This document shows, piece after piece, positions 24,488-59,855 of a stretch of 64,000 nucleotides of DNA. Source of the stretch: Chloroflexota bacterium (GTDB lineage Bacteria > Chloroflexota > Dehalococcoidia > Tepidiformales > Tepidiformaceae). The notes beneath the pieces are model-generated. The model ran no database searches. It worked only from the letters and a program-made list of their open reading frames with translations, and had not been told where the DNA came from. A program made the position numbers and the translations under genes. The DNA lies in the NCBI GenBank assembly GCA_026705605.1, contig JAPPAK010000001.1:310001-374000 (forward strand). The letters run 5' to 3'. The number at the start of each line of letters is the position of its first letter. The stretch's first letter is position 1.

Positions 24488-24994
24488 CTACTCCGAGGGA
24501 GCCTCCTGTACCCAGCTCGCCAGCGGGTGCAGGGTCCGCTTGGCGATGCGCCAGCCGTCCTCGGTCCGCACGGCCTGATCGATGTACGTGAGCAGCACGA
24601 GGAAGACGTCGCCGTTCGGCTGGAGGTGCGAAGCGTGCATGTACGTCGACATCTCCGCGCTTTCGCCGTCCTCGCTCGGCACGATGTTCACGCTGCCGAT
24701 GAGGTGCTGCGTCGCGATGTGCCCCATCCCCCGAAACGTCCCCTCCACGAACCCCACCCACTCGTCCGGACCCGTTCGCTGCGTGTCCGGGTTCCCGCTG
24801 ATGGAGATGTCGGCGTCAGGCGTGAACGTCTGGTGGTAGAGCGCGCGCCCCACCTCCGGCTCGTCCCGCCCGATGGCGTCCGTGCCCAGCGCGTAGTTCG
24901 TGGCAAGCTGCCGGATGGCGCTCTCCATGGCAGGCCAGTCAGGCCGATCGCTTCCGCCCGCCGTCTGCAGAACACGTGGGGTCTCGTCGCTCAT
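24488..24994 (-). CDS. SnoaL/NTF2-like protein
   Basis: 168 aa. The cone-shaped NTF2-like fold is suggested by MESAIRQLATNYALGTDAIGRDE, YHQTFTPDADISISG, GMGHIATQHLIGSVNI, STYMHASHLQPNGDVFLVLLTYIDQAVRTEDGWRIAKR-type strands. Members include hydroxysteroid isomerase-like enzymes, dehydratases and dioxygenase small subunits; no catalytic residue can be assigned. Its ATG overlaps the TGA stop of the selenocysteine-containing FrnE gene (ATGA), so the two proteins are made together. Confidence 0.75.
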   Translation of the reverse strand: MSDETPRVLQTAGGSDRPDWPAMESAIRQLATNYALGTDAIGRDEPEVGRALYHQTFTPDADISISGNPDTQRTGPDEWVGFVEGTFRGMGHIATQHLIGSVNIVPSEDGESAEMSTYMHASHLQPNGDVFLVLLTYIDQAVRTEDGWRIAKRTLHPLASWVQEAPSE

Positions 24995-25635
24995 GCCTGC
25001 TCCCCCTCCTCGCGAGGTTCGCGGCCCAGCTCTTTCATGACCGCCTGGAACGTCTCGTACTCCTGCGCCCCCACGACCGCGTACTGCTCGTCGAAGATGA
25101 AGGTCGGCACCGAGCGCACCCCCGCGAGCCGCGCCCCCTCCACCGCCTCTTCCACCTGCTCCCGGTAGACCCCATCCGTAAGCGCCTGCCGCAGCTCCTC
25201 CCCGGGCAGCCCCGCCTCCTCCCCCAGCCGCATGAGCGTGTCGATGTCGCCGATGTCCTCGAGTTCGTCGAAGTACGCATCGAAGACGCGCCGGTGGAAC
25301 GCCTCCGCGCAGTCGCCGTGGTCCGCCGCGAACTCTGCTGCCTGCAGCGCCGGAATCGAGCTCGACCGCATCGTGCGTCCCTCCCTGAACCGCAGACCCA
25401 GCGCCCCGGCGCGGTCTTCCATGTAGGTTCGCGACTCGCTCTTCGGCGCTGAGGGAGGAGGCTGCGGCCGCCCCTCCAGGGGCACGCTCGCGTCGAGCAG
25501 GAATGGTGCGTACTGCACCTCGACGCCCTCGTAGTCGCGCTTCAGCTTGTCGACCTCGCCGAGGCCGATGTAGCACCAGGGTCAGACGAAGTCGGAGACG
25601 ACGGTCAGGACCGTGCGCGCAGGTGTCTCGCTCAT
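24991..25635 (-). CDS. FrnE/DsbA-family selenoprotein (Sec18, UxxC motif)
   Basis: 214 aa if the TGA at 25582-25584 is read as selenocysteine. The protein then begins MSETPARTVLTVVSDFV, followed by Sec18-Pro-Trp-Cys21-Tyr-Ile-Gly: exactly the FrnE active site CPWCYIG with the first Cys replaced by Sec. Downstream the DsbA-like helical insertion (about 60-165) and cis-Pro177 in RSVPTFIFDE are intact. The frame is open on both sides of the TGA, ATG 25635 has a perfect TATACT box 6 nt upstream, and a SECIS-like hairpin follows the codon. FrnE proteins are cytoplasmic DsbA-like thiol oxidoreductases. Automated gene calling would start too late, at 25518, and lose the active site. Confidence 0.85.
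25550..25568 (-). other. SECIS-like hairpin of the FrnE selenoprotein gene
   Basis: Minus-strand stem TCGGCCTC (25568-25561) and GAGGTCGA (25557-25550), 8 bp with one G-U pair, loop GGC at 25560-25558. The stem begins 13 nt after the TGA and the loop G lies 22 nt after it. This agrees with the known bacterial SECIS pattern: a hairpin within the coding region with a G at the start of the apical loop, about 16-37 nt downstream of the UGA. Confidence 0.65.
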
Positions 25636-25641
25636 GCGGCG

Positions 25642-25647
25642 AGTATA
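25642..25647 (-). promoter_or_regulatory. -10 box, FrnE selenoprotein (leaderless)
   Basis: TATACT on the minus strand, 6 nt before ATG 25635. It supports the upstream start codon that places the TGA inside the gene. Confidence 0.6.
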
Positions 25648-58793: not shown

Positions 58794-58799
58794 TACGAT
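58794..58799 (+). promoter_or_regulatory. -10 box, selD (leaderless)
   Basis: TACGAT, 6 nt before the GTG start at 58806, fixing the start that keeps the selenocysteine codon inside the gene. Confidence 0.55.
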
Positions 58800-58805
58800 C
58801 GTCCC

Positions 58806-59855
58806 GTGACTGCACACGAGATCCGGTTGACGGACCTGACCGGCTGCGGCGGCTGAGCGTCCAAGGCGGGCCCTGAGGCCCTGGCGCAGGTTCTGTCGCC
58901 ACTGACCGAGGCGTTCGATCCCGAAGCGCATCCCGATCTCCTCGCCGGGCTCGGGACGCCCGATGATGCCGCCGTCTACCGCATCAACTCGCGCACCGCC
59001 GTCATCGCCACCCTCGACTTCTTCGCCCCGCTCGTCGACGACCCCTGGCAGTACGGGGCCATTGCTGCCGCCAACGCCATGTCCGACGTCTACGCGATGG
59101 GCGGCGAGGTCGTGCTCGCCCTCAACGTCGCCGCCTTCCCCGAGGACCTGCCCCCTGACGTCGCCGCCGAGATCATCCGCGGCGGCGCCGACAAGGTCGC
59201 CGAGGCCGGCGGCGTTGTCGCCGGTGGCCACACCGTCTGGGACGAGGAGCCCAAGTACGGCCTCAGCGTGCTGGGTCTTGTGAACCCCTCCCGCCTGCTG
59301 CGCAAGGCCGCCCTCCGCCCCGGCGACCGCCTCTACCTCACGAAACCACTCGGCACCGGCGTCATCCTCTCTTCAACCGGCAGCGGCCGCGGCGACCCCG
59401 CCTGGCTCGACAGCGCCATCGAGTCGATGCTGCGGCTCAACCGCCACGCCGCCCACCTCGCCACCGGCCACCGCCTGCGCGCCGCCACCGACATCACCGG
59501 CTTCGGCCTCCTCGGCCACCTCTGGGAGATGGTCGAACGCTCCGGTGTCGCCGCCACGATCGACGCCTCCGCCCTCCCCCTCCTCCCCGGCGCGCATGAG
59601 TCCGCCGCCATGGACGCCCATACGGGCGGCGAGGGCCGCAACCGCGACTGGGTCGGCGACAACCTCACGGTCGCCCCTGGCGTCGACGCCGAACTCGCCG
59701 CCATCGCCTTCGACCCCCAGACCTCAGGCGGCCTTCTCCTCGCCTGCCCCGCCCGCAAGTCGAAGGCCCTCGAAGCCGCCTTCGCCGCCGATGCGGAACC
59801 CCTCCACCCCATCGGCCGCGTACGGCGCGGGGATCCCCACCTCACGCTGCGCTAG
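58806..59855 (+). CDS. selD: Selenide, water dikinase (SelD) containing selenocysteine
   Basis: 349 aa with GTG start and an in-frame TGA at 58854-58856 read as Sec17. The N-terminus is then [16 protein letters not shown]-Sec-ASKAGPE, which places Sec at the position of E. coli Cys17 and Lys20 in the essential C/U-x-x-K motif. Downstream, [40 protein letters not shown] (the AIR-synthase-type core) and [12 protein letters not shown] are classic SelD. The enzyme makes selenophosphate from selenide and ATP, the selenium donor for Sec-tRNA. A conventional gene call would begin after the TGA and lose the active site. gatB follows after 32 nt. Confidence 0.93.
58857..58887 (+). other. SECIS-like hairpin of selD
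   Basis: Upper stem GGGCC (58868-58872)/GGCCC (58877-58881) with loop CTGA; lower stem GCG-CCA (58857-58863, one bulged T) with TGGCGC (58882-58887); a 4-nt bulge separates them on the 5' side. The loop G is 19 nt after the TGA, inside the bacterial SECIS window. Confidence 0.6.

What the first reader, a model, noticed from the sequence alone, without database searches (positions are those of the whole stretch)
24991..25635. FrnE/DsbA-like protein with selenocysteine in place of the first active-site cysteine
Seen: an open frame from ATG 25635 to 24991 is broken only by a TGA at 25582-25584, exactly at the first Cys of the FrnE motif (DFV-TGA-PWCYIG). The second Cys (Cys21) and cis-Pro177 are intact, the -10 TATACT is 6 nt before the ATG, and an 8-bp hairpin with G in its loop begins 13 nt after the TGA. 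Known: Sec replaces redox Cys in many thioredoxin-fold proteins, and bacterial UGA recoding needs such a hairpin. Inference: a functional Sec-containing FrnE-type oxidoreductase, which standard annotation would report as a truncated protein lacking its active site.
Basis: partly seen in the sequence, partly recalled or inferred. Interest (0 to 1): 0.88.

Follow-up and report, generated by a model that had tools for sequence, protein, structure and literature searches.

The report
Selenocysteine-containing FrnE-type redox protein
A bacterial gene that looks broken by a stop codon almost certainly makes a complete redox enzyme with selenocysteine in its active site; such enzymes are already known, so this is a well-supported new example and not a new kind of thing.

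Summary
The frame 25635-24991 (-) has a single internal TGA (25584-25582), at the first Cys of the CPWC motif of a DsbA/FrnE-fold protein. The genome has a UCA tRNA-Sec, SelA (16), SelB (17) and SelD (50); SelD lies in this window and has its own in-frame TGA (58). Of 109 homologous sites read, 75 are TGA, 34 Cys, 0 anything else (37). Of 71 genomes with a TGA form, 62 have SelA over cut-off and 7 of the other 9 have SelB (60, 39). The hairpin meets published bacterial SECIS limits in 62 of 75 TGA genes against 4 of 34 Cys genes (86), and it covaries (44). The AlphaFold model is confident; its nearest solved structure is D. radiodurans FrnE (77, 81). Against novelty: 'DsbA-like' UxxC selenoproteins under COG2761, the COG of frnE, were published in 2005 (PMC1088965; PMC1978522). 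This is a new member of a known kind, frequent among the relatives searched (Dehalococcoidia). Side result: a -10-like box 6-7 nt before the start codon is conserved, so the mRNA may be leaderless (74). Sec incorporation itself is inferred, not shown.

The parts
24991..25635 (-). FrnE-type (DSBA domain) selenoprotein gene, 214 residues, with in-frame TGA at codon 18 read as Sec
   Evidence: Pfam DSBA 101.3 bits against cut-off 25.6; PDB FrnE E = 1.3e-19; model pLDDT 93.8
25582..25584 (-). UGA codon for Sec18 in the motif DFV-U-PWCYIG
   Evidence: TGA, TGC or TGT in 109 of 109 homologous sites
25550..25568 (-). predicted bacterial SECIS hairpin: 8-bp stem, loop GGC, loop 21 nt after UGA, -10.7 kcal/mol
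25642..25647 (-). TATACT, -10-like box ending 6 nt before the ATG; suggests a leaderless transcript
   Evidence: TANNNT near this place before a candidate start in 29 of 37 close homologues, against 17 of 3456 ATG/GTG in the window
24488..24994 (-). SnoaL-like gene whose ATG overlaps the terminal TGA of the frnE frame (ATGA)
   Evidence: Pfam SnoaL_4 67.5 bits; among 7 same-genus copies ATGA in 5, GTGA in 1 and TGATG in 1
58806..59855 (+). selD, itself with an in-frame TGA at codon 17 (GCGG-U-ASK); supplies selenophosphate
   Evidence: TIGR00476 346.7 bits with 1 TGA inside; reading

Best explanation
The gene encodes a complete thioredoxin-fold oxidoreductase of the FrnE/DsbA type, with selenocysteine at position 18 in a UxxC active site (Sec18-Pro-Trp-Cys21). 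Established bacterial mechanism, inferred here: SelD makes selenophosphate, SelA converts Ser-tRNA-Sec to Sec-tRNA-Sec, SelB brings it to the ribosome, and the hairpin 13 nt after the UGA tethers SelB so that UGA is read as Sec and not as stop. The Sec18 selenolate at the start of helix 1, near the Val-Pro177 loop, would attack a substrate disulfide and Cys21 would resolve it, giving a disulfide reductase or isomerase. The N-terminus shows no hydrophobic signal-like stretch by eye, so the protein is probably cytoplasmic. Shown: frame, motif, conservation, machinery genes, hairpin conservation. Predicted: fold. Inferred: Sec insertion, redox activity, substrate, location.
For: Frame and single TGA. 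DSBA domain and FrnE structural relatives. tRNA-Sec 71.1 bits with anticodon TCA; SelA 518.2 bits; SelB 302.3 bits; SelD 346.7 bits. 109 of 109 sites TGA or Cys. TGA form tracks the Sec machinery: 62 of 71 TGA genomes are SelA+, 20 of 27 Cys-only genomes are SelA-; 7 of the 9 SelA- TGA genomes have SelB over cut-off, and 0 of 4 tested Cys genomes do. Hairpin: 28 of 28 close TGA against 0 of 9 close Cys copies with all 8 pairs; bSECIS limits met by 62 of 75 TGA against 4 of 34 Cys; covariation score 0.386 against a shuffled 0.144 for TGA, 0.178 against 0.156 for Cys. Purifying selection after the TGA: dN/dS 0.10-0.31 in 21 same-genus pairs.
Against: No direct proof of Sec insertion. 13 of 75 TGA genes fail my version of the bSECIS limits (contiguous stems only); all 13 lie outside the close set. 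Two TGA genomes (G077, 94% complete, 470 contigs; G129, 90%, 230 contigs) have no SelA or SelB match over cut-off, only weak or fragmentary ones. 7 of 27 Cys-only genomes keep SelA. The phylogeny-aware test is not significant: 7 independent pairs on supported branches, median p 0.125, though nearly always in the expected direction. Hairpin alone in the window: p = 0.077; no single sequence of 109 reached p <= 0.01. The Cys genes also pair better in this register (64% of cells) than when slid (29-47%), because the peptide itself favours it.
Confidence: 0.96

Rival explanations
1. The TGA is a real nonsense mutation or a sequencing error, and the gene is a pseudogene or an ordinary Cys protein.
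For: Standard translation gives only a 17-residue start, plus an ORF from GTG 25518 without the active site.
Against: TGA recurs at 75 of 109 homologous sites in 71 genomes, in all 7 of the 9 same-genus genomes that have the gene, and in named assemblies L048-L053. dN/dS after the TGA is 0.10-0.31. Only TGA or Cys codons are found. The hairpin is kept with the TGA.
Confidence: 0.01
2. UGA ends translation and the ribosome restarts at GTG 25518, making a 175-residue protein without its redox centre (regulated truncation).
For: That ORF exists and would itself be under purifying selection.
Against: Residues before and around the TGA are conserved (S14, D15, W20, C21, G24 invariant in 30 rows). 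Cys stands in place of TGA mostly where SelA is missing (20 of 27 Cys-only genomes). The hairpin meets SECIS limits.
Confidence: 0.02
3. UGA is read as some other residue, such as Cys or Trp, by another tRNA.
For: SelA-type systems can load Cys when selenium is short (recalled, not tested).
Against: UGA is a normal stop here: 5 of 9 genes checked by hand end in TGA, this one included. A complete Sec system is present. No site of 109 has a Trp codon.
Confidence: 0.01

Closest known systems
DsbA-like selenoprotein family (Sargasso Sea 2005, COG2761; 'DsbA-like protein form 1', PF01323, UxxC)
   Same: Same Pfam domain, same UxxC arrangement, widespread Cys homologues, SECIS-like hairpin after the UGA. 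COG2761 is the COG given for D. radiodurans frnE (passage of PMC1978522; passages of PMC1088965; of PMC13188914).
   Different: The published members' sequences were not at hand, so no direct alignment was made. The host here is a Dehalococcoidia bacterium (by kinship to named MAGs); the passages that I saw name no Dehalococcoidia for this family.
FrnE of Deinococcus radiodurans (DR_0659; PDB 5cnw, 5co3, 5coh, 5cp1, 5xwh)
   Same: Best solved-structure match by sequence (E 1.3e-19) and by fold (TM 0.81-0.82 by query length, 28-29% identity); CPWC motif in the same place.
   Different: Sec for the first Cys. The window protein is shorter and lacks the C-terminal CXXXXC that PMC8945050 (passages) describes in drFrnE; that paper says many, not all, FrnE proteins have it.
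Rcas_1661 family thioredoxin-like (seleno)lipoprotein, NF041057 (listed as DsbG-like in PMC13188914)
   Same: Weak match over the C-terminal half, 46.2 bits.
   Different: Far below its cut-off of 190 bits; the match (residues 89-201) leaves out the active site.

Membership tests
Bacterial selenoprotein (UGA-encoded Sec) | In-frame UGA aligned with Cys in homologues | tested here: met
   75 TGA, 34 Cys, 0 other of 109
Bacterial selenoprotein (UGA-encoded Sec) | bSECIS hairpin: loop 3-9 nt, stem 4-16 bp, G in first two loop positions, loop 16-37 nt from UGA, energy <= -7.5 kcal/mol | tested here: met
   8 bp, GGC loop, 21 nt, -10.7 kcal/mol; limits from PMC13188914 section 5
Bacterial selenoprotein (UGA-encoded Sec) | SelA, SelB, tRNA-Sec and SelD in the same genome | tested here: met
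Bacterial selenoprotein (UGA-encoded Sec) | Sec present in the protein | not testable with these tools
   needs mass spectrometry or 75Se labelling
FrnE / DsbA family (PF01323, COG2761) | DSBA domain over the Pfam cut-off | tested here: met
   101.3 bits against 25.6. COG2761 itself was not searched; no COG library is on hand.
FrnE / DsbA family (PF01323, COG2761) | CxxC-type motif at the start of helix 1 and a Pro before the facing strand | tested here: met
   Sec18-PW-Cys21 with helix 19-34; P177 before strand 178-181; positions 18, 21 and 177 invariant in 34 rows. That the Pro is cis was not measured.
FrnE / DsbA family (PF01323, COG2761) | Fold closest to FrnE | tested here: met
   the first 5 of 974 Foldseek matches are D. 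radiodurans FrnE entries
FrnE as in D. radiodurans | C-terminal CXXXXC pair | tested here: not met
   the 214-residue sequence has no such pair; many, not all, FrnE proteins have it (PMC8945050 passages)
FrnE / DsbA family (PF01323, COG2761) | Disulfide reductase or isomerase activity | not testable with these tools
   needs an enzyme assay
Rcas_1661 (seleno)lipoprotein NF041057 | Score over the curated cut-off | tested here: not met
   46.2 against 190 bits

The most novel reading that the evidence does not exclude
Sec-FrnE is the common form of this oxidoreductase among the Dehalococcoidia searched and was swapped with Cys repeatedly, mostly where SelA is missing (17 changes on the best tree, at least 7 forced by supported branches). 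In the window's lineage it is made from a leaderless mRNA, so that UGA recoding happens 17 codons after a ribosome has started with no 5' leader. A search for leaderless, selenoprotein and SECIS together listed 4 papers, none on this by title, so a leaderless bacterial selenoprotein mRNA may be undescribed.
Probability: 0.45. Interest if true: 0.45.

Novelty: new member of a known kind. Interest (0 to 1): 0.33.

Why it matters
It adds a large, clean set of Sec/Cys forms of one redox protein: 75 Sec and 34 Cys copies in 98 genomes of one class, including a Sec/Cys pair within one genus (g16: G029 Sec and SelA+, G023 Cys and SelA-). That makes it a practical system for asking what selenium buys a FrnE-type enzyme. 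It also shows how a plain reading of the genetic code splits such genes and hides their active site.

Tried and rejected
Pseudogene or base-calling error, restart at GTG 25518, and UGA read as another residue were each considered and rejected (see rivals). A significance claim from the window's hairpin alone was rejected: synonymous shuffles give p = 0.077, and no single sequence of 109 reached p <= 0.01. A phylogeny-corrected claim that the Sec form follows SelA was not made, because the pair test is not significant. Leaderless use throughout the window was looked for: only 4 of 49 gene-like frames have a TANNNT box at that spacing, so it is not claimed. Literature searches for FrnE with selenoprotein (9 papers), DSBA oxidoreductase with selenoprotein (26, 1 paper), Dehalococcoidia with selenocysteine (63, 12 papers) and selenoproteins with Chloroflexota MAGs (70, none) listed no paper that, by title and start of abstract, treats this protein in this class; of these I saw passages of PMC5424206 and PMC4918011 only. 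Most subscription papers are not held.

Full report
What is there. On the minus strand, ATG 25635 opens a frame that runs to the terminal TGA at 24993-24991 with one internal stop, TGA 25584-25582, codon 18. Read through, it is a 214-residue protein with a Pfam DSBA domain (101.3 bits, cut-off 25.6). Its best sequence match among solved structures is D. radiodurans FrnE (E 1.3e-19); in that alignment the first Cys of the CPWC motif stands at the TGA.

Machinery. The window's genome (2.79 Mb in 9 contigs, 94% complete) has one tRNA-Sec over the Rfam cut-off (71.1 bits), called tRNA-SeC with anticodon TCA by ARAGORN. It has SelA at 518.2 bits, with the motif SGDKLLGGPQ, which I recall as the SelA lysine site. 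It has SelB at 302.3 bits in a 620-residue ORF. It has SelD at 346.7 bits with one TGA inside. SelD lies in the same window at 58806-59855 (+). Its TGA is codon 17, in GCGG-U-ASK, which I recall as the position of the catalytic Cys17 of E. coli SelD. So the window holds at least two likely selenoprotein genes. Of the three other DSBA matches in the genome, one passes the cut-off over most of the domain, one passes over its C-terminal part and one does not pass; none has a stop inside.

The site in relatives. A search of 196 genomes (the window's own and its relatives) found homologues in 99. Every listed hit covering the site was read: 109 sites in 98 genomes. 75 are TGA, 25 TGC, 9 TGT and none is another codon. 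Of 9 same-genus genomes, 7 have the gene, at 76-100% identity, and all 7 have TGA. In the separate genome-contig search, the best 80 of 140 relatives were kept; 79 gave a site (L084 did not), and all 79 were TGA, TGC or TGT. The nearest named record is Dehalococcoidia bacterium SB0661_bin_22, 96% identical; the class name for the window rests on this.

Link to the machinery. SelA was searched in 196 genomes chosen the same way, and 123 pass its cut-off. 62 of 71 genomes with a TGA form have SelA; 7 of 27 Cys-only genomes do (Fisher p 1.1e-8, not corrected for kinship). Of the 9 TGA genomes without SelA over cut-off, 7 have SelB over cut-off; G077 and G129 show only weaker pieces. Of 4 Cys genomes tested for SelB, none passes. 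On a quick protein tree the label changes 17 times, at least 7 forced by well-supported branches. Seven independent pairs on supported branches give a mean of 4.5 in the expected direction and 0.1 against, but the median sign-test p is 0.125, so this is not significant.

The hairpin. UCGGCCUC-GGC-GAGGUCGA starts 13 nt after the UGA; its loop is 21 nt after it and its energy -10.7 kcal/mol. The published bacterial SECIS limits (section 5 of PMC13188914) are met by 62 of 75 TGA genes and 4 of 34 Cys genes. All 28 close TGA genes keep all 8 pairs; none of 9 close Cys genes does. On 75 TGA genes (71 distinct), 7 of 8 pairs show changes on both sides, and the covariation score is 0.386 against a shuffled mean of 0.144; on 34 Cys genes 4 of 8 pairs do and the score is 0.178 against 0.156. 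Shuffles ignore kinship, so these numbers are not probabilities. For the window alone the hairpin is compatible with chance given the peptide (p 0.077). A paralogous Sec group (L148, L149, L161, L163, L164, L168) has the hairpin shifted by one base.

The protein. dN/dS after the TGA is 0.10-0.31 in 21 same-genus pairs. AlphaFold2 on an alignment of 34 gave pLDDT 93.8 and pTM 0.90, with residue 18 just before helix 19-34 and Pro177 just before strand 178-181. The first five fold matches are D. radiodurans FrnE (TM 0.81-0.82 by query length). The protein lacks the C-terminal CXXXXC of drFrnE. The most likely activity is disulfide reduction or isomerisation in the cytoplasm; this is inferred from the family.

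Context. The terminal TGA overlaps the ATG of a SnoaL-like gene. In the 7 same-genus copies the junction is ATGA in 5, GTGA in 1 and TGATG in 1, so the two frames stay coupled. A carboxymuconolactone-decarboxylase-like gene and a 3-hydroxyisobutyrate-dehydrogenase-like gene follow, and an MMPL transporter gene lies upstream. A TANNNT box 5-8 nt (nearly always 6-7) before a candidate start occurs in 29 of 37 close homologues, against 17 of 3456 ATG/GTG in the window. The homologues had up to four candidate starts each, so the two rates are not counted quite alike. This suggests a leaderless mRNA.

What is known. The Sargasso Sea paper lists 9 DsbA-like UxxC selenoproteins under COG2761 (passages of PMC1088965). 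COG2761 is the COG given for D. radiodurans frnE (passages of PMC1978522). A 2006 survey lists DsbA-like selenoproteins and counts 3 selenoproteins in Chloroflexi (passages of PMC1794560). A 2016 survey counts 45 DsbA-like selenoproteins in 41 organisms (passages of PMC5029168), and a 2026 review lists 'DsbA-like protein form 1', PF01323, UxxC (passages of PMC13188914). Sec machinery, a UGA-containing SelD and a UGA-containing formate dehydrogenase are reported in the Dehalococcoidia isolate Dehalogenimonas alkenigignens (passages of PMC4918011). The finding is therefore well supported but belongs to a known kind.

Noticed in passing
window 58806-59855 (+): selD is itself a UGA-containing gene (TGA at codon 17), a second likely selenoprotein gene in the same window; a plain reading would also truncate it.
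   Followed up: yes
window 25642-25647 and the same place in L018-L047, L128-L134: TATACT/TANNNT shortly before the start codon (mostly 6-7 nt) in 29 of 37 close frnE homologues, a sign of leaderless transcription of this gene.
   Followed up: partly
window 58794-58799: TACGAT lies 6 nt before the GTG of selD, the same spacing as at frnE (seen by eye).
   Followed up: no
L148, L149, L161, L163, L164, L168: A second, paralogous Sec-containing group (motif DYV/DYI-U-PWC) in genomes of the same family, with its hairpin shifted by one base.
   Followed up: partly
G010, G059, G065, G105, G124, G182: Six genomes carry both a Sec and a Cys paralogue of this family.
   Followed up: no
L021 (G001) and its named copy L050: One same-genus copy has His for the Pro after Sec (U-H-W-C); the XX pair tunes redox potential in classical DsbA (recalled).
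   Followed up: no
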